A DNA stretch of 22,399 nt from a virus, in the IMG/VR virus record IMGVR_UViG_3300032242_000852, positions 1 through 22,399 of that record; one strand, written 5' to 3'. The translations under genes were made by a program, and so were the position numbers. Within the stretch, counting starts at the first letter, position 1, and the number at the start of each line of letters is the position of its first letter. Below are positions 7,172 through 22,399 of this stretch, piece by piece. The notes under the pieces are model-generated. The model did no database searches, was not told where the DNA came from, and saw only the letters and a list, made by a program, of their open reading frames with translations.

Positions 7172-9100
7172 ATGGCGAATTATAACGTTTTTTATTCTGA
7201 TCCAGGTAAAACCACTCCAATAGTAGTTGTAGATGGTACGCTGAATATAACAGATACTAGTCTAAAACTGGTAGGACAAAATTATCCCGGCTATGGTCCT
7301 GCGTTATCGGAAAACCTATTACATGTTCTAGAAAATTTTGCAAGTTCTAGTCCGCCCAACAATCCGATTGAAGGACAGTTGTGGTTCAATACCAGCGATC
7401 CTTTGAATAAAAAATTATTCGTCAATGATGGAACAGCATACAATTCATCATGGTCTCCAGTTAACGGAGTACATCAAACCCCATTATCACCATCTAATGC
7501 CAATCTTGGAGATGTATGGGTTGATACTAATCAGCAACAGTTGAGTTTCTGGAATGGTAGCTCATGGATTCTAGTAGGTCCAGCATACTCAGGCACTACA
7601 AAAACTGGGCCATATGCTACTACATCAACAGACGTTACAGGTGTTACACACAATATCGTTATCAATTATGTTAACGGTACTGCTATGGAAATTATTTCCC
7701 CTACTAACTTCATACCGTTGCAGTCTATTGATGGATTCCCAAACATCTCAACTGGTGTAAACGTAACAAAGAAAAACTTTGGCACTACACAAAGTCCTAA
7801 TTATGCAACGCTAAATGGCACAGCCAATGCTTCATTGGGCTTGTTACAAAGCGGAACAACTATTCCTGTTATCGCAGATAATTTTGCGAGATTAGATGTC
7901 CCTCAAACATTTAATAAAGTAGTAACTTTTTCCGATGACCAAGATAGAGGTATTTTAATCGGAAGTCAACCTACACTAGCGATCCAAAGACAAAATCAAT
8001 ACGATGCTGTATTTCTAAATACCTTCGGCGCTAATCACTCAAGCGGCGGAAGATTCGTATTCCGTGCTATTAAGAACAATGTAAACTCCCCTTTACTAAC
8101 AATAGACGGAGATAAAAATAAAGTCTACGTAGGATCTCAAGGACTTGCTAACGGAGATCTTGTAGTAAATGGATCTATTGACGGCACGACAGCTACAGTT
8201 ACTACTCTATTAGTTACATCTACACTCAACAGTTTAACTAATACTGTATCAAACGCACTAGTAGTAAATGGAGGCGCAGGCATAGGCGGAACATTATTAG
8301 TGACAGGAGAACATATTCTCAAAGGAGCACTAACAGTAGGTTCTAATCCTATCACGACTCCTCTTAATACAACAACTGCTCTTGTAGTTCCTAGCCAAGC
8401 AGGTCATTATACATTAGGAGATACCAATGTATGGTGGAGTAATGTTTATTCAACTCAGTATAGCGGCCCAAACGGAACTCCAGCTACCTTTAACGGTAAT
8501 GCCACAAAGGCATCACAACTTTCATCACCTTTCAACCTAAGTCTGCAAGGTGCATTGCAGTCGAATGTCAAACAGGTTACAGGTAATCAAGGTGATTTTG
8601 CTTTACAAACACAAGCTACACAAGATCTTATCTATACAGCGCCGGGCGGAACGACAGCAACAACACGTGTGTCTGATCAGTTGTTGATATATAGACAACT
8701 ACAGGTAAATGACGTTAATGTGCCAGATACTGGAGCACATGGTAACGGACAGATATATAGACAGCAGAAATCGGATTTCTTGCAAGATTTATACGCCGGA
8801 CTGATACAAACAGGATGTGTAATTCCATTTGCAGGCCCAGCAAACAAATTACCTAGCTTTGCAAATAATCCTAACTTTCCGTCATTGAATGACGCGACCA
8901 GACCAGCCTGGTTAATTTGTGATGGTACTGCATATGACGGTAGTCAAGCATCTAGCCCTTATTATAACCTATATCAAGTTATAGGTAACCTATACGGCGG
9001 AACAGGTCCTGGTAACTTTAAAGTTCCCGACTTGAGAAATCAAGGACTAGCAGGCAATCAGGGAGTTGGTCCTTACTTAAATTACATAATAAAGACCTAA
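7172..9100 (+). CDS. Fibre paralogue 1, with C-terminal phage tail collar domain
   Basis: 642 aa. This is the first of four tandem paralogues. The shared N-terminal module (about residues 1-200) has LVGQNYPGYG, LLHVLENFASS and GQLWFNTSDP, then VWVDTNQQQLSFWNG and WILVGPAYS. The middle is a beta-rich, repetitive shaft with Asn, Thr and Ser in abundance. The C-terminus from about residue 546 is a tail collar-type domain: GCVIPFAGP, then PAWLICDGTAYDG, YYNLYQVIGNLYGG, FKVPDLRNQG and a terminal YLNYIIKT. This fold is found at the ends of T4 gp12-like and other phage fibres and is typically the receptor-contacting tip. The start has only a weak upstream GGA. The gene is 4 nt from the following paralogue. 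A virion fibre role is well supported by architecture; the receptor is unknown. Confidence 0.87.
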   Translation: MANYNVFYSDPGKTTPIVVVDGTLNITDTSLKLVGQNYPGYGPALSENLLHVLENFASSSPPNNPIEGQLWFNTSDPLNKKLFVNDGTAYNSSWSPVNGVHQTPLSPSNANLGDVWVDTNQQQLSFWNGSSWILVGPAYSGTTKTGPYATTSTDVTGVTHNIVINYVNGTAMEIISPTNFIPLQSIDGFPNISTGVNVTKKNFGTTQSPNYATLNGTANASLGLLQSGTTIPVIADNFARLDVPQTFNKVVTFSDDQDRGILIGSQPTLAIQRQNQYDAVFLNTFGANHSSGGRFVFRAIKNNVNSPLLTIDGDKNKVYVGSQGLANGDLVVNGSIDGTTATVTTLLVTSTLNSLTNTVSNALVVNGGAGIGGTLLVTGEHILKGALTVGSNPITTPLNTTTALVVPSQAGHYTLGDTNVWWSNVYSTQYSGPNGTPATFNGNATKASQLSSPFNLSLQGALQSNVKQVTGNQGDFALQTQATQDLIYTAPGGTTATTRVSDQLLIYRQLQVNDVNVPDTGAHGNGQIYRQQKSDFLQDLYAGLIQTGCVIPFAGPANKLPSFANNPNFPSLNDATRPAWLICDGTAYDGSQASSPYYNLYQVIGNLYGGTGPGNFKVPDLRNQGLAGNQGVGPYLNYIIKT

Positions 9101-9104
9101 TACA

Positions 9105-10964
9105 ATGGCATACACAATAAATTATACCAACGGTAATATTCTAACAACTATACCTGATCAAACAGTGGATCAGGTCAATACCAGTTTGACTCTAATAGGT
9201 AAGAACTATAATGCCTATGGAACTTATTATAACGATAACCTGGTAGCATTGTTAGAAAATTTTGCTAATACAACTCCGCCCAGAAGTCCTGTAGTAGGAC
9301 AGCTTTGGTTCAATACAAACGCTGGCCGATTGTACGTATTCAACGAATCAAGATTACCCCGACCTGTCGGTGGCCCAATTATCAGCAATACACAACCAGT
9401 AGGTCCAGTTGCCGGCGATTTGTGGATCGACACAGCTAATGGACAGTTAAAATACTACGATGGTATATCTGGAAATTATGCACAGACTGGAAAGCTATAT
9501 TCGGATGTAACAGGCAAAGCCGGTTTCGTTATCGAAACAGTGCAAGACAATACACTAAATTCTAGAACGGTAGCTAATCTATACAATAATGGCACCATAA
9601 TCGCTGTACTTAGCGATGCGGCTTTTACATTGGCCAATCCTATAGGTGGATTGACCTCTATAGTACAAGGTTTGAATCTCGTAAACACCGCCCGACTACA
9701 GGGCACCGCAAGCAACGCTAGTGGCGTAGCAGGAGTTGATTCAAATAAAATTACTGCGTTCTTTAATACATCTACAGCAGTCATAACAGGAACACTTATC
9801 ACTGTTGGTGGTATAAACGCTGTTAATGGTGGCATACAGTTATACAACGATAATTTTACTAATAATACTATTTCCAGCAGTACATTGGAACAGGACTTGA
9901 CTTTCCAAGTAGCCAGCGTTAACCAAGGCGGTAATTTATCTGCTATTCGAATCAAACCTAGCACAAAGCAAATAGGTATATGGACAGATACTCCTGGTTC
10001 AAACGCAGGTGGCACCTATTATAATTTAGATATCGTAGGTAATACTAGAATACAAGGTAATCTAGATATTATCAACAATGCTACCAGCATAGAAGTCAAG
10101 AATTTAAAAGTAGAAAATAAAGTAATCGAACTAGCTTATCCAAGTTTACCAGATGTGAACTTAGATAACGCAGGTATTGTTCTGCATGGTACGCAAGATC
10201 ATACTATCTATTATCGTTCTGCTACATCTTGGTGGGAATTTAATAACAGTATTAATGTTACTTCTCCAAATACCTATAACGTAAACAATACTCCTATAGT
10301 ATCTTATGTTTCCGGCGGCCTAAACTTGGTCAATATTAAAGGGGCGCCTGATTTAGAAACTGTAGGTACACTGACAAATATACAAGTCGGCAACATCACT
10401 ATTTCTACTTCAACTATTAATACAGTTAATAATGGCGATCTTGTTCTAATGAACAATAATCCTGTTCTAGGAAATATTAATATCAGCGGCAAGAAGATAA
10501 TCAATTCTAAAGCTACCTTAATAACAGACAGCACAAGCACTTTGGCCACTAAAGGTTATGTCGATAGCGTACAACAAATCGCGGCCAGCAAAAAATATGT
10601 GTTTACAGTTGACATTACAGGTAAGGCTAATCCGGACACGTTCATCATTGGTAATTTCTTGAACGTTATGCTTCCTCCTGTCGATCCTGTGAGTTCATTA
10701 TATAACATACCGGACCAGGCAGAAGCTAGAGTCAATACACTTAACTATATTTTGCCAGCCTTGCTAACCAACGTTACATTTGCAGGACAATATGTAAGTG
10801 TTGACAAAGGTGGCATACAAAATAGTCAATCGGTACTATACGGAACCCCAGGTATTACTGTAAGCACACAACCAGGTCAGGCACCTGTTTGCATACAACG
10901 CATTTATAGATACTATGTATCGGGATCAACTTGGGTAGCAGATCCAGGTAATCCGATCGCTTAA
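9105..10964 (+). CDS. Fibre paralogue 2, distinct beta-rich C-terminus
   Basis: 619 aa. The N-terminal module matches its three neighbours: SLTLIGKNYNAYG, NLVALLENFANTTPPRSP, GQLWFNTNAGRLYVF and DLWIDTANGQLKYYDG. The middle is beta-rich with several NGG and NNN turns. Near residue 480 it has STLATKGYVDSVQQIAA, a motif type common just before fibre tips, which probably forms a short trimeric coil. The final about 130 residues (from KKYVFTVDITGK to WVADPGNPIA) have no collar or peptidase signature that I recognise, so the tip is unclassified. The ATG is 4 nt after the previous stop, with no evident Shine-Dalgarno, suggesting translational coupling. The next paralogue begins 10 nt downstream. 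The role is inferred as a virion fibre or fibre-associated adhesin. Confidence 0.82.
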   Translation: MAYTINYTNGNILTTIPDQTVDQVNTSLTLIGKNYNAYGTYYNDNLVALLENFANTTPPRSPVVGQLWFNTNAGRLYVFNESRLPRPVGGPIISNTQPVGPVAGDLWIDTANGQLKYYDGISGNYAQTGKLYSDVTGKAGFVIETVQDNTLNSRTVANLYNNGTIIAVLSDAAFTLANPIGGLTSIVQGLNLVNTARLQGTASNASGVAGVDSNKITAFFNTSTAVITGTLITVGGINAVNGGIQLYNDNFTNNTISSSTLEQDLTFQVASVNQGGNLSAIRIKPSTKQIGIWTDTPGSNAGGTYYNLDIVGNTRIQGNLDIINNATSIEVKNLKVENKVIELAYPSLPDVNLDNAGIVLHGTQDHTIYYRSATSWWEFNNSINVTSPNTYNVNNTPIVSYVSGGLNLVNIKGAPDLETVGTLTNIQVGNITISTSTINTVNNGDLVLMNNNPVLGNINISGKKIINSKATLITDSTSTLATKGYVDSVQQIAASKKYVFTVDITGKANPDTFIIGNFLNVMLPPVDPVSSLYNIPDQAEARVNTLNYILPALLTNVTFAGQYVSVDKGGIQNSQSVLYGTPGITVSTQPGQAPVCIQRIYRYYVSGSTWVADPGNPIA

Positions 10965-10974
10965 GGAATAAACA

Positions 10975-13098
10975 ATGTCATATCTAATAAGATTATACAA
11001 CAATACGCTTTTAACAACAGTGCCAGATGGACAGGTAGACAACACCACATCTTTAAATCTTATTGGAAAGAACGTTTCTGGATTCGGACAATACCAGAAC
11101 GATAATTTTGTTTGGTTATTAGAAAACTTTGCCAGCGACAGTGAACCCGTAAACAAACTACAAGGTCAAATTTGGTTTGATAATAAAGCTGGTATGCTTC
11201 GTCCTATGGCCTACGATGGTAATAATTGGAGACCGTTGGGCGTAACTCTTTACAGTACAACATCAACAGATGCTACTATAAATCCATCAGGTGATCCAGT
11301 TAGTGCATCACAACCTGGAGATTTTTGGTACAAGAGCGATGACCGTCAGTTATACATTGCTACAACTAGTTCGGGATATCAATTGATTGGTCCCGAACGT
11401 GTCCCCGGCTTCTTAGAAACTAAAATGCGTTCTACGGCAGTAGCGGACAGCACAGGCACTAGCCATCCGGTAGTTGAGTTGATCATCAACGGCGAAAACA
11501 TGGCTATCTTTTCGCAGAAAACATTTGCATCTACTTCATCTCTAGTAGCTACAGGATTTCCGACTATCTACAGAGGCATTACATTTAAAAATTATTCTGC
11601 TCAACATAGATCTGTAACTACAAGTACTGATGTGGCATTATACGGTATTCCAAATCTATTGGATGCCACATATCCTCAACGTAACGTAAGTGAAACTATT
11701 GCCAGCAGATGGACTTTCCAAAATGGATTATCTCTAGGTGGCGCCAGCGGAACAGCTTCTATAATCAGTGATGATAATATAGATAATCTAAACGTAGGTG
11801 CAGGCGGAGCAAACATTACTTTCAGTATAAACAATGGAACCGGCGTAGCTAAAGTTTTACAAGAAGGCATTATACCATCGGGTAACAATCTACAACAACT
11901 GGGCAACATCAGCAACTTATGGAAGAATGTTTACAGTCTAGGACTAAGTGCCGGTACACCAAATACCAATGCTACTCTAGACGGACAGTGGCAATTGACC
12001 AACAACAGTCGTGTTGTACCATTTGCAGATCTAGGTAACGATCTTGGCACATCAGTTTTAAGATACAATTCCATTTATGCCGGCACACTAAGTTCGGGTC
12101 CACAGCAGGGAACGCTAGCTGGTAATTGGAAATTAGATACAAACACAGGCATTATACCCAACAGCGATTACGGTAATAGTCTAGGTAGTCCGGCAGTAAG
12201 ATTTGATACGGTTTATGCTAGAACATTTAATGCAGGTATTAATAATCCAGGTAACTTAGTTGGATCGTGGGCAGTTAAGGGAGATATGCTACCAGCAGAC
12301 GATGTGGCTTATAACTTAGGAGCCCCTGGAAGTACATGGCGATCAGCTACTATTGGTGACATTACCGCTAACACTATTACCGCAGGCGCCCTGACAGCAC
12401 AAATTACTAGTTTAACTGACAGCGCCAGCAATGCTATAGCACAGTTTGATAATGACGTTAGATTGACAGCCAATTTAGCCAGCAGAGTTCCTACACAATA
12501 TGCTGTTAAAAATTATGTAGATGCCGCTATTGCTTTACTACAACAAGAAATCAATGCGTTAAGTGCTTCATTGAATGCGGCTTTAAACAACTTTACAGCG
12601 ATACCTGCTGGTACTATTATGCACCACGGTGGATCTTCAGCGCCAAGCGGATTCTTAATATGCGATGGTTCCACAGTATTGACTACTTCTTATCCAGATC
12701 TGTTTGCCGCTATCGGTTATACATATGGCGGCGGCGGTACAGAATTTGCCCTTCCTAACTTGCTTGGAGAATTTATCCGCGGTTGGGATAGAGGACGTGG
12801 CATTGACTCTGGGCGTAACTTGGGATCAGTCCAATCAGATAACGTTAGATTCTTAGAGCATTATCACGTGATGCCAGGCGATGATCAATTGACATTTGCT
12901 GGTAACTCTGCTAATTGGCCTAATAGAAGCCTTGGAGGATTCCCGTACGATGCTAGATCAGTTTATGGCGGCGGAGCACAGATGTGGTTAACTGGTAATG
13001 CTGTAGACATCAACGGAAACAATGTTACGAATGGTGGTGAGACAAGACCACGCAACGTTGCCCTACTACCTATAATTAAATTTAGAAACGGAAGTTAA
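10975..13098 (+). CDS. Fibre paralogue 3, with coiled coil, collar domain and HxH motif
   Basis: 707 aa; start supported by AAGGA at 10963-10967, 7 nt before the ATG. The shared N-terminal module is clear: SLNLIGKNVSGFG, FVWLLENFASDS, GQIWFDNKAG and DFWYKSDDRQLYI. The shaft includes three or so internal repeats of the type NLG-x-W-(K/R)-(N/S)-V-Y-(S/A), around 11905-12240. Near residues 505-541 TQYAVKNYVDAA leads into a Leu-rich coil (LLQQEINALSASLNAAL), a probable trimerisation segment. From about 542 follows a collar-type tip: PAGTIMHHGG, SGFLICDGS, YPDLFAAIGYTYGGGG, FALPNLLGEFIRGWD, then EHYHVMPGDD and a C-terminal ETRPRNVALLPIIKF. HYH is an HxH of the kind that binds metal in T4 long-tail-fibre tips, though metal binding here is only a possibility. 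Confidence 0.88.
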   Translation: MSYLIRLYNNTLLTTVPDGQVDNTTSLNLIGKNVSGFGQYQNDNFVWLLENFASDSEPVNKLQGQIWFDNKAGMLRPMAYDGNNWRPLGVTLYSTTSTDATINPSGDPVSASQPGDFWYKSDDRQLYIATTSSGYQLIGPERVPGFLETKMRSTAVADSTGTSHPVVELIINGENMAIFSQKTFASTSSLVATGFPTIYRGITFKNYSAQHRSVTTSTDVALYGIPNLLDATYPQRNVSETIASRWTFQNGLSLGGASGTASIISDDNIDNLNVGAGGANITFSINNGTGVAKVLQEGIIPSGNNLQQLGNISNLWKNVYSLGLSAGTPNTNATLDGQWQLTNNSRVVPFADLGNDLGTSVLRYNSIYAGTLSSGPQQGTLAGNWKLDTNTGIIPNSDYGNSLGSPAVRFDTVYARTFNAGINNPGNLVGSWAVKGDMLPADDVAYNLGAPGSTWRSATIGDITANTITAGALTAQITSLTDSASNAIAQFDNDVRLTANLASRVPTQYAVKNYVDAAIALLQQEINALSASLNAALNNFTAIPAGTIMHHGGSSAPSGFLICDGSTVLTTSYPDLFAAIGYTYGGGGTEFALPNLLGEFIRGWDRGRGIDSGRNLGSVQSDNVRFLEHYHVMPGDDQLTFAGNSANWPNRSLGGFPYDARSVYGGGAQMWLTGNAVDINGNNVTNGGETRPRNVALLPIIKFRNGS

Positions 13099-13100
13099 TT

Positions 13101-15191
13101 ATGCCATATATTTTAAACAAAACTAACGGAAAGCAGATAGCAGTAATTCAAGACGGCACTATTAACAACACGTCAGCAGATTTGACTTTCGTAGGAAAGA
13201 ATTATTCGGGGTATGGGCAAGTAGTTAATGAAAACTTCCTACAACTTTTAGAAAACTTTGCAAATCCAGTCGCCCCTTCTAAGCCAGTTATCGGTGAACT
13301 ATGGTATGATTCTGGTAATAAAAAACTATGTATCAACACTACAGGCACAGCGCAAGGTTGGAAAAAACTAGCTCTTATAAACAACACAGAAGCTGGTTAT
13401 CCTCTAGATCAAACACTGGGTGATTTTTATTGGGACAGTTCTCTACAGAAATTATATCTATATAACGGTTCCGACTATGTGTTAATCGGTCCAATCAATA
13501 GTGGCGGCGCGGCCGCAAGCGGTGCGGTTATCGGCACACTAACTGACAATAACAATCAAAGCCATCCTGTACTATTACTACAAATAGATGGAGATACTCC
13601 TGCCCTGATCGCAGATTTCAGTGCTACAACTGCTAACCAAGATCCATTATATGTAAAATATCCTACAGTTGGAAAAGGTTTGTCAATACAAGGTTCCAAT
13701 AATGTCGGTATTAGTTGGCCAACTTACAGTCTTTGGGGTACTGCTAGCAGTGCTAGAGGCTTAGTTAGAGCTAGTGATAATTATTCTATTCTACATACAG
13801 GTGATGATTTCCTATTACAATCTGAACTTGCAGGATTTAGCGGTTCAATCAATCTACAAACTGACGACGGAATTTATGTTGGTAAAAATAGAATAGCGCA
13901 ACTTCATGTTCAACAAAATACACAAGGTGCTCTATCAAATATACAGTCTACTAGATTTAATTTTAATGTTACACGAAGTAACGTTCTAACAGAAGTATTC
14001 CATATTGACGGTAGTAATTCGGGCTACAATCAGATAGTGCCTAATCCTAATGTAACAACTAACATTGGTGCGACAGGAACAGGAAATGCTTTCAATAAAT
14101 TATATTCATCCAATTTAATCTCTGCAACATTGACAGCGCCTGGGGCGACTGAACCTGCAAGCCAGCCTGCGTCCGGAAGCGGTATAATAACGGGTAATTG
14201 GACAGTAAATGGAAATATTTCTGTATCTGGTGGTTCTATTACAGCTACTACTGCTGGTCTCTCAACTAATGCAAACAATCTACAGAATGCAACGTCAGAT
14301 GCATATATTCATGCTAAAATAGATGCATCAACAAACTCCATTCTACAGTTGGATAGTGATGGTTATGCAAACGTTAGAGGCCTAACAGGTTATCTCAATC
14401 CTAAGATCAAAGGCACTTGGACTTTAGATTTTCAATCTTCGCTACAGGCCAGTAGTCTAAAAAATGCCAACGGAAGTGGTTACATTACACCGACAGTCTC
14501 TGGAACTCCGGATCAAATAAAAGATACGCTTGTACAAAGAGATGCTAGCGGTGGCATTACTGGAGTAGCAATATATGGCGCTAGTCTACAAGCTCCTACA
14601 CTAAGAGCTTCCTCTGATCCACAAGGTCAAGGAACGATATACGGCCAATGGCAAATGGGCTCGGCGGCTACCTTACAGGCTACTAGTTTAGCAGGAACAG
14701 GCGGATATTTTGCGGCAACAACAGATGGTGGACAAGCCAATACTATAGTCCAGCGTGATTCCAGTAAAAATGTCTCCGCTAACGATTTTTACGGAAACGT
14801 ATTCCACGGTACTTCGACTGCGGCTCGTTATGCTGACTTGGCAGAAAAGTATACAGCAGATACAGAATACGAGCCAGGAACAGTTCTGGTGCTTGGAGGA
14901 GATAAAGAAACAACATTATCTACTAGCCGGGCTAGTATAAATTGGGCAGGCATTGTTTCTACTAACCCTGCGCATTTGATGAATGAAGGTATTGATGGAG
15001 TTGCAGTTGCACTAAAAGGACGAGTACCATGTAAGGTAGTAGGACCTGTGAGCAAAGGCGATTTGATAGTTACAAGTTCCACTCCGGGCTACGCAGAAGC
15101 ATATCGCGATGGAGATAGCACACTAGCAGTAATAGGCAGAGCTTTAGAGGCCTTGCCCGACGGACTTGGAGTGATAGAAGTTAAGGTCTAA
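13101..15191 (+). CDS. Fibre paralogue 4, with GRVPCKV/GDLIVTS-type C-terminal domain
   Basis: 696 aa, last gene of the rightward module, 2 nt after the previous stop. The N-terminal module is shared: DLTFVGKNYSGYG, NFLQLLENFANP, GELWYDSGNKKL and DFYWDSSLQKLYLYNG. The shaft carries G-x-W (I/T/Q) repeat units (ITGNWTVNG, IKGTWTLDF, IYGQWQMG). From about residue 574 the C-terminal domain has ARYADLAEKYTADTEYEPG, TVLVLGG, WAGIVSTNPAHLM, VAVALKGRVPCKVVGP, SKGDLIVTSSTPGYA, AVIGRALEALPDGLG and ends IEVKV. This matches, from memory, a beta-rich module that ends many phage and bacterial fibre-like proteins and is reminiscent of autoproteolytic tail domains (Peptidase G2-like). No catalytic residues can be assigned with confidence. 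The stop codon's last base lies at the left edge of the downstream terminator hairpin. Confidence 0.86.
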   Translation: MPYILNKTNGKQIAVIQDGTINNTSADLTFVGKNYSGYGQVVNENFLQLLENFANPVAPSKPVIGELWYDSGNKKLCINTTGTAQGWKKLALINNTEAGYPLDQTLGDFYWDSSLQKLYLYNGSDYVLIGPINSGGAAASGAVIGTLTDNNNQSHPVLLLQIDGDTPALIADFSATTANQDPLYVKYPTVGKGLSIQGSNNVGISWPTYSLWGTASSARGLVRASDNYSILHTGDDFLLQSELAGFSGSINLQTDDGIYVGKNRIAQLHVQQNTQGALSNIQSTRFNFNVTRSNVLTEVFHIDGSNSGYNQIVPNPNVTTNIGATGTGNAFNKLYSSNLISATLTAPGATEPASQPASGSGIITGNWTVNGNISVSGGSITATTAGLSTNANNLQNATSDAYIHAKIDASTNSILQLDSDGYANVRGLTGYLNPKIKGTWTLDFQSSLQASSLKNANGSGYITPTVSGTPDQIKDTLVQRDASGGITGVAIYGASLQAPTLRASSDPQGQGTIYGQWQMGSAATLQATSLAGTGGYFAATTDGGQANTIVQRDSSKNVSANDFYGNVFHGTSTAARYADLAEKYTADTEYEPGTVLVLGGDKETTLSTSRASINWAGIVSTNPAHLMNEGIDGVAVALKGRVPCKVVGPVSKGDLIVTSSTPGYAEAYRDGDSTLAVIGRALEALPDGLGVIEVKV

Positions 15192-16401: not shown

Positions 16402-17667
16402 TTATTTATAGTAGGCTACATTACCATATGGTGGGATTATGGAATCGTTTCCATGGATGATAAACAGGGTATCGCAATAGTCCTCATCACCCCAGCTACC
16501 GCATGGATAACCGTCTGTAAACATGATGAACTTTTTAGGTACCAAATCCTCATCTTTCATGAAACGGAAATTAGCTTCGAAATCAGTACCACCTCCGCCT
16601 TTGACTTGATAGCTGTTAATGTCATCTGCTGTGTCTCCAGTAAATTGAGCATAGTTATAAACTTCGGTATCGAAGCACCAAATGTCCAATTTAAAGTCTA
16701 CGTATTCTTCCATGATACCTTTGACTTCTGAAATAAAGTCTTTGGCTTGATCGTCAGTAATACTACCGCTCATGTCGATAGCACAACTAACATCGATAGT
16801 TTCTTCGTTCATAAGTCCTGGCAGGATAGCACCGCTCATTTGACTCTTGCGGTTAGGACGAGCAAAGCTAAAATTATTTTTAACGATGCTTTGGATTTGC
16901 ATACGCAGAAGCTGTCGCCAATCCATCTTAGGCTCAGTGAAGTCTTGTATCATACGAGCGATACCTGCTGGTATACGACCAGCGCCTGCGGCCTGTGCGG
17001 CACTAATCATAGCTTCCTTGATCTCATCACGGATGGCTTTCTTTTCTTCAGGAGTCAGTTTAGGACGACCGCCCTTACCTTCCTTATCGCCATCTTTGCC
17101 TTGACCATCTTTGCTGTCGCCATCACCTTCATTATCATCCAAGTGATCATCGAGCAATTCACCTAATTGATTCAAATCAATTTTAATAGCTTTTTCTTCC
17201 AAGTCGGCGTAGATCTTTTCGTAGGACCAGCCGCGATATTTGTCGTCTTGGAAGATTTGTATCATGTGAGGAACATCACCGATGCGCTCATCTTTAAGGA
17301 TTTGGTTAGCCGCATAGTCTGCCGCAATATTAGAAAGTTGGGGATCACGTTCATTACGGCGTCCCATATGATCAAACACATTATGTAAAACTTCATGTGC
17401 AAACCCAAACTCTGTTTCACGTGGAGTAAGTTTATCTACGAAGCCCACATTGTAGTAAAATGTACGACCATCTGTAGCCAAAGTAGAACACCAATTGCTG
17501 GCGTCTACTAACTTCATGCGAGTAGCAAGATTACCAAAGAATGGATGCTTGAGTAAAAGTCCTACACGAGCTGTAGTTAGCTTTTCTATTACTTTATTTT
17601 TCTCTGCATCTGTATAGACACGATCTTTGTCTACTTTTTTAGTTTTTTCCTGCTTCATTACTGCCAT
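16402..17667 (-). CDS. VWA protein with HExxH metallopeptidase-like N-terminal domain (DUF2201 type), partner of MoxR ATPase
   Basis: 421 aa; GGAG at 17674-17677 lies 6 nt before the ATG. The N-terminal domain (about 25-150) has HEVLH at 91-95, a further His at 100 and NIAADYAANQ at 113-122, as in the metallopeptidase-like half of DUF2201 proteins. Residues about 170-205 form an acidic, Gly/Asp/Lys-rich low-complexity linker (DGDGDSKDGQGKDGD type). Residues about 206-285 are helical. The C-terminal VWA domain (about 290-421) has an intact MIDAS: D298-M-S300-G-S302, T361 in GGGGTDF and D385 in FTDG. Such proteins typically work with MoxR AAA+ ATPases, as the one encoded at 17939-19024, in ATP-driven maturation or remodelling of target proteins. 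Cobaltochelatase CobT is an alternative, but the HExxH domain fits DUF2201 better. Protease activity is unproven. Confidence 0.9.
   Translation of the reverse strand: MAVMKQEKTKKVDKDRVYTDAEKNKVIEKLTTARVGLLLKHPFFGNLATRMKLVDASNWCSTLATDGRTFYYNVGFVDKLTPRETEFGFAHEVLHNVFDHMGRRNERDPQLSNIAADYAANQILKDERIGDVPHMIQIFQDDKYRGWSYEKIYADLEEKAIKIDLNQLGELLDDHLDDNEGDGDSKDGQGKDGDKEGKGGRPKLTPEEKKAIRDEIKEAMISAAQAAGAGRIPAGIARMIQDFTEPKMDWRQLLRMQIQSIVKNNFSFARPNRKSQMSGAILPGLMNEETIDVSCAIDMSGSITDDQAKDFISEVKGIMEEYVDFKLDIWCFDTEVYNYAQFTGDTADDINSYQVKGGGGTDFEANFRFMKDEDLVPKKFIMFTDGYPCGSWGDEDYCDTLFIIHGNDSIIPPYGNVAYYK
16403..16410 (-). promoter_or_regulatory. Exact T4-late promoter box TATAAATA
   Basis: The minus strand reads TATAAATA, an exact match to the T4 late -10 consensus, made from the last codons and stop of the VWA gene (Tyr-Lys-stop). 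The predicted start near 16397 would transcribe the three small genes 16389-15218 separately from the early VWA transcript. The leader would be only about 8 nt, which weakens the case; the octamer could also be a coincidence of codons. Confidence 0.45.
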
Positions 17668-17698
17668 AAGTTACTCCATAAGTTCAGTGTATATTAAT

Positions 17699-17727
17699 AT
17701 TATATAGTCTTTTTACCAGATTGTCAA
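17699..17727 (-). promoter_or_regulatory. Perfect sigma-70 promoter upstream of the VWA gene
   Basis: The minus strand has TTGACA (17722-17727), a 17-nt spacer, and TATAAT (17699-17704), an exact consensus. The predicted start near 17692 gives a leader of about 25 nt containing the GGAG ribosome site. The -35 overlaps the TGA stop of the 55-aa gene. The region just downstream includes the palindrome ATATTAATAT (17691-17700), a possible operator. Confidence 0.9.
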
Positions 17728-17891
17728 TAGTTTTCTTTGACAAAATAATACTCGGGCTTGGGATACTTTTCCAAAAGCTCTTTCTCCTTGATGAACTCGT
17801 TCATTTTTGGAGCAGTAAAAAACATTTGATGGAATACAGATTTATGAGTTTTAGATTCGATTATACTTAGGTACCAAGATTTTACAGCCAT
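17724..17891 (-). CDS. 55-aa protein of unknown function between the MoxR and VWA genes
   Basis: A short reading frame of 55 codons with AAGG at 17901-17904, 9 nt before the ATG. The product begins MAVKSWYLSIIESKTHKS, continues with FHQMFFTAPKMNEFIKEKE and ends KYPKPEYYFVKENY. It is Lys/Glu/Tyr/Phe-rich and hydrophilic, with no membrane segment or recognised motif. It starts 24 nt after the terminator hairpin of the MoxR gene, and its stop codon lies inside the -35 of the VWA promoter. No good promoter of its own is visible, so it is probably read by read-through of the terminator. Its position suggests a link to the MoxR-VWA pair, but that is inference. Its size is below common ORF cut-offs, so annotation pipelines may miss it. 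Confidence 0.68.
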   Translation of the reverse strand: MAVKSWYLSIIESKTHKSVFHQMFFTAPKMNEFIKEKELLEKYPKPEYYFVKENY

Positions 17892-17914
17892 TTTATTTTT
17901 CCTTTTTTATAGTG

Positions 17915-17940
17915 AAAAAGGGCCCCGAAGGGCCCTTTTT
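17915..17940 (-). terminator. Strong terminator with UUCG tetraloop after the MoxR gene
   Basis: Minus-strand RNA forms AAAAAGGGCCC-UUCG-GGGCCCUUUUU, an 11-bp stem closed by C-G around the extra-stable UUCG loop and followed by five U. It begins at the last bases of the MoxR stop codon (17939-17941). The UUCG reads correctly only on the minus strand, matching the direction of transcription. Confidence 0.93.
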
Positions 17941-19024
17941 AGTTCTCCATTGCAACCATTACGTATTTGCCGTAGTTCTCATGGAACCTATCAAAGTTCT
18001 TGAGCTTGCTAGCGTCAAACGGTAATTGGTAATTAGTGAGCGCAACTTTGGAACCCATTACAACTAATTCGGTTGGGAAATTATCCATCATAAATCCGAA
18101 GAAGTTATCTGCCATTTCGTTCCAGTTCTTGGCTTTCTTTTCCCAAGAATTTTGGAGCTCATAGCACATACTAATTGTCAAAGAGTACATCGCGGAGATT
18201 TCTTTGATGTCCATCTTTTTAACCTTGCCATCGAGGATATCTTCTGGCTTAGGCATCTGTTTAGCTACCTTGCGGTGAGCCATAAACTTAACAGCAAGTC
18301 CTTCACCAATAGCACCTGCAACCAAGTCGGTAAGGGTCGATTCTGGCAAATCGTCATCCCACAGTAAATCGCTTACAAATGACCAAGAGCGTGGAGTAGC
18401 GAAAGAACGTGAGCTGGATTTTGGATCATAATCGTAAAGATCATTTTTTGCAAAACCTACATAACCAACGACTTGTTCGTGGATCTTGTTAGCGACAGCC
18501 CATTCTTGCCAGTCATCAAAACTAGGTTTTAGTTCCAAGTGTAGGAAGCGATTAGCCAACGGAGCAGGCATACGATATGTTACACCCTTATCACCCTCGC
18601 GGTTACCAGCGGCAACAATGCTAACACCTTTTGGCAAATGATATGTACCGACACGGCGGTTCAAAATCAGCTGATAAGCCGCGGCCTGTGTAGCAGGAGC
18701 CGCAGAGTTAAGTTCGTCTAAGAACAGTACTGCGGTACTATCTGGATCTGCAGGAAGCTCAATTGGAGGAGCCCATTGCATGGTTTTTTGTTCTGGGTGA
18801 TAAAAAGGAATACCTTTAATATCGGTAGGTTCCCACAAGCTCAAACGAACGTCGATAACGTCACGACCTTGTTCAGCCGCAATTTGGTGGATAATATCTG
18901 ATTTGCCAATACCTGGAGGGCCCCACATGAAAACTGGGCGACCAACTTTAAAGCATTTACGGATAGCCGCTTTGGCTTCGTTGGGCGATTGTGTACGATT
19001 AGTACTGACTTCTGCTCTTGCCAT
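17939..19024 (-). CDS. MoxR-type AAA+ ATPase
   Basis: 361 aa; AGAGGA at 19030-19035 is 5 nt before the ATG. The AAA+ core is complete. Walker A is GPPGIGKS (35-42), Walker B VLFLDE (99-104), sensor 1 is AAGNRE around N141, the arginine finger is in LANRF (R159) and a sensor-2-like ATPRSW has R212. The order and the short N-terminus fit the MoxR/AAA_5 group. These ATPases form hexameric rings that work with a VWA protein, here encoded two genes downstream, to remodel or insert cofactors into target complexes. In cyanophages a CobS-like ATPase of the same superfamily is common, so CobS is an alternative name; the partner's HExxH domain argues for a general MoxR-DUF2201 pair. It has its own sigma-70 promoter and terminator, so it is a monocistronic unit, probably early. 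The C-terminal third (about 220-361) is helical and less typical. Confidence 0.93.
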   Translation of the reverse strand: MARAEVSTNRTQSPNEAKAAIRKCFKVGRPVFMWGPPGIGKSDIIHQIAAEQGRDVIDVRLSLWEPTDIKGIPFYHPEQKTMQWAPPIELPADPDSTAVLFLDELNSAAPATQAAAYQLILNRRVGTYHLPKGVSIVAAGNREGDKGVTYRMPAPLANRFLHLELKPSFDDWQEWAVANKIHEQVVGYVGFAKNDLYDYDPKSSSRSFATPRSWSFVSDLLWDDDLPESTLTDLVAGAIGEGLAVKFMAHRKVAKQMPKPEDILDGKVKKMDIKEISAMYSLTISMCYELQNSWEKKAKNWNEMADNFFGFMMDNFPTELVVMGSKVALTNYQLPFDASKLKNFDRFHENYGKYVMVAMEN

Positions 19025-19079
19025 TTTGTTCCTCTGTTAAAAAGTTAAAATAGAAAACTGTAACGCTCACTATGTATAT

Positions 19080-19108
19080 AGTATAACGCCGTTAGCAGAT
19101 AAAGTCAA
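19080..19108 (-). promoter_or_regulatory. Near-consensus sigma-70 promoter upstream of the MoxR gene
   Basis: The minus strand has TTGACT (19103-19108), a 17-nt spacer, and TATACT (19080-19085): five of six matches in each element with ideal spacing. Predicted start near 19073, leader about 49 nt. An inverted repeat, ACTAT-N4-ATAGT (19069-19082), overlaps the -10 and start region and could be an operator. Confidence 0.85.
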
Positions 19109-19128: not shown

Positions 19129-19146
19129 CGTTGTATTTTTACAACG
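19129..19146 (-). terminator. Weak AT-rich hairpin at the end of the preceding gene
   Basis: Perfect inverted repeat CGTTGTA-N4-TACAACG that overlaps the TAA stop of the 130-aa gene and is followed on the minus strand by TATTTTGG. The stem is only 7 bp and the U-tract is interrupted, so it may be a weak terminator or an RNA-processing or stability hairpin separating this gene from the MoxR unit. Confidence 0.4.
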
Positions 19147-21582: not shown

Positions 21583-21959
21583 TAACTAACTTCCGATCTA
21601 CCGTTGCCGATGTTTGTTACGTTTATGTATCCAGCACCGCGGCGTTCCATACCAATCTGTTCTTCCATTGCGACATCTCTGCACAAGTCCTTGAACCATG
21701 CGTCAACGATAGCTTCTTCTGAATCGCCGCGATACCCTGCTTCTCTTAATTGTATAATAAAATACTCGTTCCAGTCAAGCTCAAAAAAGCCATTCCTGAT
21801 GTTTTCTTTATTGACATGAGTAGTCAGAACAGATATATAAGGCTCTTTTTTGGCTGTTGCGGCCTCTTTTGGATTTAGAGTTTCTGGATGTACTACATAT
21901 TTCTTTGCTTCTTTTTTACCTTTAAAATTGGTAAAAAACTTTTTAATCTTCTCAATCAT
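21582..21959 (-). CDS. Conserved T4-like phage protein, unknown function, translationally coupled to the exonuclease
   Basis: 125 aa. The start at 21959 is chosen because GGAG (21967-21970) is 7 nt upstream and the ATG overlaps the previous stop as ATGA; the longer frame from 21983 adds eight residues that overlap the upstream gene and lack a Shine-Dalgarno. The N-terminus is a Lys-rich helix (MIEKIKKFFTNFKGKKEAKK). Next come YVVHPETLNPKEAATAKKEP, YISVLTTHVNKENI and a core ELDWNEYFIIQLREAGYRG, EAIVDAWFKDLCRDV, then a C-terminal INVTNIGNGRSEVS. From memory the same order, oxygenase then this protein then RNase H, recurs in cyanophages, so it may be functionally linked to replication, but no function is known. 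No catalytic motif or membrane segment is visible. Confidence 0.83.
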   Translation of the reverse strand: MIEKIKKFFTNFKGKKEAKKYVVHPETLNPKEAATAKKEPYISVLTTHVNKENIRNGFFELDWNEYFIIQLREAGYRGDSEEAIVDAWFKDLCRDVAMEEQIGMERRGAGYINVTNIGNGRSEVS

Positions 21960-22399
21960 TTTGATTCTCCATATACTACGCATGAATAATTAGTCGTTAA
22001 TACCCAGCGTTCTTCGTCACTTTGGTTTGGTTGTGTTCTGTGATGTAACCAACCATAAAAAAATAATACATCGCCTGTTACAGCAGGTACAGCACAATAT
22101 TCTTCTACATCATACTGTTTGGCTCTTTTGTGTATGCTGTGCATTTCAAAAAGAGGATCACGGAATTCTATATATCCGCCATCTTCGGGCATTTGTATAT
22201 ATGCCGCGATGCTCATCACACTGATTCCGTGTGTATGAGTTTTAGTTACTCCACCGCGACCGTGTACGTTGATCCAACTGTTAGATACCCAATAGGGAAT
22301 ATGCTCCGTGAGATGCATATTGTTTAAAAGTATTTCTCCAGCCTTTTTCTGTTGCCAATTGTAAAAGTCTTTAAATGCAGGATGTCTAGCAGGAGGCAT
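21956..22399 (-). CDS. 2OG-Fe(II) oxygenase-like protein, N-terminus probably outside the window
   Basis: 147 aa visible, to an ATG exactly at the window edge, so the true start may lie further right; family members I recall are about 190-220 aa. The fold's signature is present: HTHG around residues 55-58 with a leading conserved WVSNSWINVHGRGG, then MSIAAYIQMPEDGGYIEF, GDVLFFYGWLHHRTQPN (about 109-125) and RWVLTTNYS. H-x-H in THTHG plus H in WLHHRT and R in ERW match the iron- and 2-oxoglutarate-binding pattern of phage 2OG-Fe(II) oxygenases. Such enzymes hydroxylate or oxidise a substrate using 2-oxoglutarate and oxygen; the phage substrate is unknown. The ATGA overlap with the next gene shows coupling. 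Confidence 0.8.
   Translation of the reverse strand: MPPARHPAFKDFYNWQQKKAGEILLNNMHLTEHIPYWVSNSWINVHGRGGVTKTHTHGISVMSIAAYIQMPEDGGYIEFRDPLFEMHSIHKRAKQYDVEEYCAVPAVTGDVLFFYGWLHHRTQPNQSDEERWVLTTNYSCVVYGESK
21967..21970 (-). promoter_or_regulatory. Ribosome binding site deciding the 21959 start
   Basis: GGAG on the minus strand, 7 nt before ATG 21959, inside the last codons of the oxygenase gene. Confidence 0.75.

What the first reader, a model, noticed from the sequence alone, without database searches (positions are those of the whole stretch)
16402..19108. Phage-encoded MoxR ATPase plus VWA/HExxH protein with independent early-type promoters
The sequence shows a complete MoxR-type AAA+ (GPPGIGKS, LFLDE, sensor 1, R-finger, sensor 2) and, two genes on, a VWA protein with intact MIDAS and an HEVLH domain. 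In bacteria such pairs act as chaperone or remodelling machines, and MoxR-VWA modules also occur in some anti-phage or stress systems. A lytic T4-like phage keeping both, each under its own strong host-type promoter, suggests host takeover, counter-defence or maturation of a virion or cofactor-bearing target. The function is inference.
Basis: partly seen in the sequence, partly recalled or inferred. Interest (0 to 1): 0.7.

Follow-up and report, generated by a model that had tools for sequence, protein, structure and literature searches.

The report
Phage MoxR ATPase with metallopeptidase-VWA partner
A large uncultivated bacterial virus carries a known pair of genes, a ring-shaped protein-remodelling motor and a partner that looks like a zinc protease joined to a gripping (VWA) domain; hundreds of phages keep this pair together, but nobody knows which protein it works on.

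Summary
ORF 17939-19024(-) is a complete MoxR-type AAA+ ATPase. ORF 16402-17667(-) is a DUF2201_N metallopeptidase fused to a DUF2201 VWA domain with an intact MIDAS. Each gene has its own sigma70-type promoter, and a strong terminator hairpin lies between them. This arrangement is conserved in relatives: moxR precedes vwa on the same strand in 141 of 141 loci holding both, and all 94 distinct moxR upstream regions carry a promoter matching at least 10 of 12 positions. Both genes occur in all 21 divergent phage genomes checked.

The pair is not new. Iyer et al. 2021 described it in group 2.2 jumbo phages and proposed virion assembly with proteolysis; homologues are N4-like core genes 24 and 25. 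By fold, the closest solved relatives are NorQ and CbbQ, MoxR motors that work with VWA partners.

Best mechanism (inferred): the ATPase ring acts through the VWA protein on a protein complex, possibly cleaving it. The target is unresolved; virion (tail) maturation is only slightly favoured over an early intracellular target. Nothing supports counter-defence.

New details: the conserved two-promoter layout, a candidate Asp third zinc ligand, and a T4-type late promoter motif inside the vwa stop codon.

The parts
17939..19024 (-). moxR: MoxR-type AAA+ ATPase, 361 aa, PHROG 1297
   Evidence: Pfam AAA_3/AAA/AAA_5 above cut-off, phrog_1297 1.6e-102, AlphaFold2 model pLDDT 88.5, best PDB folds NorQ and CbbQ2
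18899..18922 (-). Walker A GPPGIGKS (residues 35-42)
   Evidence: K41 invariant in 19 divergent phages
18713..18727 (-). Walker B, ending in D103 E104
   Evidence: E104 invariant, D103 nearly invariant
19080..19108 (-). sigma70-type promoter of moxR, TTGACT-N17-TATACT
   Evidence: 10/12; homologous site scores 10-12/12 in all 94 distinct upstream regions; 45 strong sites in 50 loci fall in this bin
19129..19146 (.). hairpin upstream of moxR, terminator-like on both strands
   Evidence: z -4.0
17915..17940 (-). intrinsic terminator right after moxR (AAAAAGGGCCC-TTCG-GGGCCCTTTTT)
   Evidence: -18.6 kcal/mol, z -4.5; terminator-type hairpin between the two genes in 65 of 96 distinct relatives
17724..17891 (-). 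55-aa ORF between moxR and vwa, function unknown
   Evidence: homologues in 30 of 150 loci scanned, almost all between moxR and vwa; no Pfam or PHROG match
17699..17727 (-). sigma70-type promoter of vwa, TTGACA-N17-TATAAT, 12/12
   Evidence: TATAAT at this place in 91 of 99 distinct relatives, with TTGAC- or TTGC-type -35
16402..17667 (-). vwa: metallopeptidase (DUF2201_N) plus VWA (DUF2201) protein, 421 aa, PHROG 1314
   Evidence: Pfam, phrog_1314 3.7e-108, AlphaFold2 model pLDDT 77
17383..17397 (-). HEVLH zinc-binding motif (residues 91-95)
   Evidence: H91 and H95 invariant, E92 nearly invariant
17317..17319 (-). D117, candidate third zinc ligand in the following helix
   Evidence: invariant across divergent phages; helix 108-125 in the model; ligand role is inference
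16762..16776 (-). MIDAS motif 1, DMSGS (D298, S300, S302); T361 and D385 complete the site
   Evidence: invariant
16403..16410 (-). TATAAATA, T4-type late promoter motif overlapping the vwa stop codon
   Evidence: promoter function inferred

Best explanation
The two genes encode a phage MoxR-VWA couple. By analogy with NorQ-NorD and CbbQ-CbbO, six MoxR subunits form an ATPase ring. The second protein (N-terminal HExxH zinc peptidase domain, disordered acidic/Gly-rich linker, C-terminal VWA domain) docks on the ring, grips a target through its MIDAS metal, and the ring's ATP-driven motion remodels the target while the peptidase domain probably cleaves it. Shown here: the domains, their conserved active-site residues, the obligate pairing, the conserved promoter-terminator-promoter layout, the NorQ/CbbQ-like fold. 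Inferred: the hexamer, the complex, the protease activity, and the target. The most likely target is a virion component, probably of the tail or baseplate, made or matured by a machine expressed early from host-type promoters.
For: Domains and motifs. Pair present in 21/21 divergent phages and adjacent in 141/141 clade loci; gene trees concordant, Mantel rho 0.92. MoxR model best matches NorQ in NorQ-NorD VWA complexes and CbbQ2; VWA model matches the midasin MIDAS domain among others. Linker predicted disordered (pLDDT < 50 at 167-197), as in NorD (PMC9976466). Target: tail fibre genes lie convergent 3-9 kb downstream throughout the clade; in K64-1 and CBB the pair directly follows tail tube and structural genes; in RPP1/LIT1 a second structural module lies near gp24/gp25 homologues (PMC4193335); the PA5oct MoxR record carries the same 'ESI-MS/MS' note as its structural proteins; archaeal virus ATV p618/p892 is a MoxR-VWA couple acting in tail development (PMC4124505).
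Against: No interaction, ATPase or peptidase data for any member. Sigma70-type promoters and middle expression of N4 gp24/gp25 (PMC4193335) are not what a purely late assembly gene needs. In N4-like phages and in Atu_ph07/Phosso the neighbours are replication and nucleotide-metabolism genes. Mass-spectrometry support is thin: one peptide in phage DC4 (PMC10638138); the PA5oct note was not traced to its paper; four major MIJ3 bands did not include it (PMC6892783). Atu_ph07 has HQILH in place of HExxH, so catalysis may be dispensable there.
Confidence: 0.45

Rival explanations
1. Same machine, different target: it remodels a phage or host intracellular complex early or mid infection (replication, transcription, or a host enzyme), rather than the virion.
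For: Strong host-type promoters concentrated at moxR (45 strong sites in 50 loci) and conserved at vwa, while a T4-type late motif appears only after vwa; N4 gp24/gp25 are middle genes; replication and nucleotide genes nearby in many lineages, and a 5'-3' exonuclease gene upstream in the window clade.
Against: Tail and structural genes nearby in the window clade, K64-1 and CBB; archaeal-virus precedent for tail development. Assembly chaperones can be made early, so timing does not decide.
Confidence: 0.35
2. MoxR-VWA couple without proteolysis: the HExxH domain is a metal-dependent docking or regulatory domain, and the machine only remodels or inserts metal, as NorQD does.
For: NorQD and CbbQO act without cleaving their targets; Atu_ph07 has lost the catalytic Glu; some phages lack the +5 His.
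Against: H91, E92, H95 and D117 stay nearly invariant where overall identity falls to about 25%, which is typical of a catalytic site.
Confidence: 0.3
3. A counter-defence or defence-like module (relative of anti-phage MoxR-VWA ternary systems).
For: MoxR-VWA couplings occur in proposed conflict systems (PMC7159879); cellular homologues sit on plasmids.
Against: PADLOC gives only weak, partial P-loop matches; bpMoxR of the ternary systems is below its cut-off; the pair is a conserved phage core gene set, not the patchy distribution expected of counter-defence genes.
Confidence: 0.05
4. The VWA protein is an HNH endonuclease, as PHROG 1314 and many phage records say.
For: PHROG 1314 label and about 23 of 60 listed records.
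Against: Pfam finds DUF2201_N plus DUF2201 and no HNH model even at E 0.1; HExxH and MIDAS invariant.
Confidence: 0.02

Closest known systems
MoxR + metallopeptidase-vWA pair of group 2.2 jumbo phages (Iyer et al. 2021, PMC7824862; ASV44729.1/ASV44728.2)
   Same: Same domain architecture, same two-gene pairing, same broad phage group (Atu_ph07 is a group 2.2 member and is among the closest relatives here).
   Different: The window is an uncultivated freshwater-type clade; the conserved promoter-terminator-promoter layout and the late motif in the stop codon are not mentioned in the passages read.
N4-like (Schitoviridae) core genes 24 and 25 (PMC4193335)
   Same: Homologous ATPase and vWFA/DUF2201 proteins, adjacent or one gene apart; HExxH and MIDAS kept.
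   Different: About 25-28% identity; other neighbours; middle-gene expression rather than visible sigma70-type promoters of their own.
NorQ-NorD and CbbQ-CbbO (bacterial MoxR-VWA couples)
   Same: MoxR fold is the best PDB match; VWA partner with MIDAS, N-terminal domain and disordered linker.
   Different: No metallopeptidase domain in NorD/CbbO; targets are nitric oxide reductase and rubisco; sequence identity about 16%.
ATV p618-p892 (archaeal virus tail development; PMC4124505)
   Same: A virus-encoded MoxR ATPase with a VWA partner, linked to tail formation.
   Different: No peptidase domain reported; unrelated virus; homology beyond family level not tested here.
Cellular plasmid MoxR-DUF2201 modules (Synechocystis pSYSA; Cupriavidus pRK1-1)
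   Same: ATPase gene followed by VWA-like DUF2201 gene.
   Different: Cupriavidus (and cyanophage MinM2) have a DUF3150 gene between them; not detected in the records scanned, though that scan had no positive control and missed annotated MinM2.

Membership tests
MoxR AAA+ ATPases | Walker A and B, sensor 1, Arg finger, sensor 2 | tested here: met
   K41, D103/E104, N141, R159, R212 conserved
MoxR AAA+ ATPases | MoxR-type fold | tested here: met
   top PDB fold matches NorQ and CbbQ2, TM (target) 0.63-0.67
MoxR AAA+ ATPases | Hexameric ring with ATPase activity | not testable with these tools
   no complex prediction or biochemistry available
MoxR AAA+ ATPases | Assignment to one of the seven MoxR subfamilies | not tested
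   no reference tree built with RavA, TM0930, YehL and others
MoxR-VWA couples | VWA partner gene linked to the ATPase gene | tested here: met
   141/141 clade loci adjacent; 21/21 divergent phages hold both
MoxR-VWA couples | Intact MIDAS (DxSxS-T-D) | tested here: met
   D298, S300, S302, T361, D385 invariant
MoxR-VWA couples | VWA 'finger' inserted into the ATPase pore | tested here: inconclusive
   only per-residue summary of the model available; a conserved hairpin just before the VWA core is a candidate
DUF2201 (COG3864) metallopeptidase-VWA proteins | Pfam DUF2201_N and DUF2201 above cut-off | tested here: met
   152.8 and 57.3 bits against cut-offs 23.2 and 26.4
DUF2201 (COG3864) metallopeptidase-VWA proteins | Zinc site HExxH with a third ligand | tested here: inconclusive
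   HExxH met; D117 is the invariant candidate ligand, geometry not measured
Anti-phage MoxR-VWA ternary systems | bpMoxR or PADLOC model match | tested here: not met
   bpMoxR 14.8 bits, below cut-off 27; PADLOC best E 0.0022 over a short P-loop stretch
CobS-CobT cobalt chelatase | Match to CobS-type family | tested here: not met
   no NCBIfam CobS match; only a weak partial match to phrog_249
HNH endonuclease | HNH domain | tested here: not met
   no HNH model among Pfam matches up to E 0.1

The most novel reading that the evidence does not exclude
The pair is an ATP-driven metalloprotease of an undescribed mechanistic type: a MoxR ring that, by twisting a VWA domain and its linker, delivers substrate to or switches on a fused zinc peptidase. 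This would be an AAA+ protease unlike the ClpXP, Lon and FtsH types, shared by jumbo and N4-like phages.
Probability: 0.3. Interest if true: 0.75.

Novelty: new member of a known kind. Interest (0 to 1): 0.35.

Why it matters
Hundreds of phage genomes, including N4-like laboratory phages of E. coli, keep this pair, yet its target is unknown and one partner is widely mislabelled as an HNH endonuclease. A tractable phage with the pair makes the question testable, and a proven MoxR-driven metalloprotease would widen what this ATPase family is known to do.

Tried and rejected
Counter-defence: PADLOC gave only weak P-loop matches. CobS/porphyrin link: no curated match. HNH endonuclease label: no HNH domain. 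Sequence search of the PDB with the VWA protein: nothing at E up to 1; with MoxR, midasin first. A bacterial genome scan with the broad VWA alignment failed because no stretch was conserved enough; the genome scan was not repeated with another query, so cellular homologues were seen only on plasmids. DUF3150 search returned nothing, control included, so it is uninformative. AR9 transcription paper: no mention of these genes under the terms tried. A search for COG3864 with MoxR in papers found none. The Mantel result is weak evidence of functional coupling, since any two vertically inherited core genes would agree.
Full report
Observation. The window is an IMG/VR virus record of 22,399 bases. 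moxR lies at 17939-19024(-), a 55-aa ORF at 17724-17891(-) and vwa at 16402-17667(-). The MoxR ORF matches AAA_3, AAA and AAA_5 above the Pfam cut-offs, and the VWA ORF matches DUF2201_N (1.8e-44) and the DUF2201 VWA-like domain (2.2e-15). The two proteins fall in PHROGs 1297 and 1314.

Promoters and terminators. The vwa promoter at 17727-17699(-) is a 12/12 match and the only site of at least 11/12 in the window, where 0.95 is expected by chance. The moxR promoter at 19108-19080(-) is 10/12. Single sites of this quality prove little, so I looked at relatives. In 94 distinct moxR upstream regions every one scores at least 10/12 and 46 are perfect, against mostly 7-9 in shuffles. Upstream of vwa, 91 of 99 distinct sequences keep TATAAT at the same place; 36 have a TTGAC-type -35 and most of the other 55 a TTGC-type -35. 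Over 50 non-redundant loci, 45 of 156 strong sites fall at the moxR start, far more than at any other position. The hairpin after moxR folds at -18.6 kcal/mol, z -4.5, and 65 of 96 distinct relatives have a terminator-type hairpin between the genes. The annotators of Yersinia phage phiR1-37 independently placed a promoter before its homologous ATPase and a terminator between it and the VWA gene. Early expression itself is inferred.

Pairing. Two viral scans gave 150 loci including the window. In all 141 where both genes were scored, moxR is upstream of vwa on the same strand, usually about 81 nt apart. In 21 divergent phage records, from a 65-kb cyanophage to a 490-kb Agrobacterium phage, both families are present in every one. 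They are not always adjacent: about 6 kb apart in Vibrio phage 1.150.O, on opposite strands in rV5 and about 3 kb apart in PA5oct. tblastn finds 703 phage records with the VWA protein and 824 with the ATPase. These counts depend on sensitivity and the 21 records were chosen from those hits, so this is not a census. Gene trees agree (Mantel rho 0.92), as expected of co-inherited genes.

Active sites. Over 19 phages with identity to the window down to 25%, invariant VWA-protein residues include H91, H95, D117, D298, S300, S302, T361 and D385, with E92 nearly so. The His five residues after HExxH is not universal. Atu_ph07 reads HQILH, an exception that would remove the catalytic Glu. In MoxR, K41, E104, N141, R159 and R212 are invariant.

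Structure. The MoxR model (pLDDT 88.5) matches NorQ in NorQ-NorD complexes and CbbQ2 best. Both are MoxR motors with VWA partners. The VWA-protein model (pLDDT 77.0, pTM 0.53) matches VWA domains, including the midasin MIDAS domain, and viral VWA-like and metallopeptidase proteins; the peptidase half found no clear solved match. Residues 167-197 are low-confidence and acidic/Gly-rich, giving the order N-terminal domain, linker, VWA that is also described for NorD (PMC9976466). In NorQD, ATP-driven motion acts on the NorD linker (PMC13036017). I infer a similar mode here.

Target. For the virion: tail fibre genes lie convergent downstream of the pair throughout the clade; the pair follows tail tube and structural genes in K64-1 and CBB; a second structural module lies near gp24/gp25 homologues in RPP1 and LIT1 (PMC4193335); the PA5oct ATPase record bears an ESI-MS/MS note, as do structural proteins nearby; ATV p618/p892 acts in tail development (PMC4124505). 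Against: host-type promoters, middle expression in N4, replication and nucleotide genes as neighbours in other lineages, one peptide only in the Staphylococcus phage DC4 virion (PMC10638138) and none among the four MIJ3 bands analysed (PMC6892783). I give the virion target a small lead only.

Known or new. Iyer et al. 2021 reported the same pair, with the N-terminal metallopeptidase, in group 2.2 jumbo phages and proposed virion assembly with peptidolytic processing (PMC7824862). N4-like core genes 24 and 25 are homologues (PMC4193335). The window is therefore a new member of a known kind. The conserved regulatory layout, the invariant Asp and the late-type motif at the vwa stop are additions that I did not find stated in the passages read.

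A regulatory boundary. TATAAATA, the T4-type late promoter core, overlaps the vwa stop codon in the window and lies at or just after vwa in 61 of 77 distinct relatives, although it is rarer than chance over these loci as a whole (68 against 178 in shuffles). Among vwa genes ending Tyr-Lys-stop, 78 of 82 use TAT AAA TAA where codon usage predicts 36% (sequences are related, so the nominal probability is overstated). It fits a late promoter for the three genes that follow, whereas moxR and vwa have host-type promoters.

Noticed in passing
16403-16410 (-): T4-type late promoter motif TATAAATA sits inside the vwa stop codon and is conserved at that place in 61 of 77 distinct relatives, beyond codon-usage expectation; the next three genes may be late genes.
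   Followed up: yes
17724-17891 (-): A 55-aa ORF of unknown function lies between moxR and vwa in this and about 30 of 150 loci, placed between the moxR terminator and the vwa promoter.
   Followed up: partly
16402-17667 (-) and homologues: PHROG 1314 and about 23 of 60 listed phage records call this metallopeptidase-VWA protein an HNH endonuclease, which its domains do not support.
   Followed up: partly
vwa upstream region in relatives (e.g. L099, L043): Many relatives have TTGC-type instead of TTGACA -35 boxes at the vwa promoter with TATAAT unchanged; whether this marks another regulator or a weaker promoter is open.
   Followed up: partly
L151 10271-11560 (Atu_ph07): The Atu_ph07 VWA protein has HQILH instead of HExxH, a natural loss of the catalytic Glu.
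   Followed up: no
L219, L160: A DUF3150 gene is annotated between ATPase and VWA genes on a Cupriavidus plasmid and in cyanophage MinM2; possible third component in some lineages.
   Followed up: partly
7172-15191 (+): Four related tail-fibre-type genes in tandem (7172-9100, 9105-10964, 10975-13098, 13101-15191) form one sequence family with several copies per locus in relatives.
   Followed up: no
21956-22399 (-): A 2OG-Fe(II) oxygenase family protein (phrog_81), cut by the window end.
   Followed up: no
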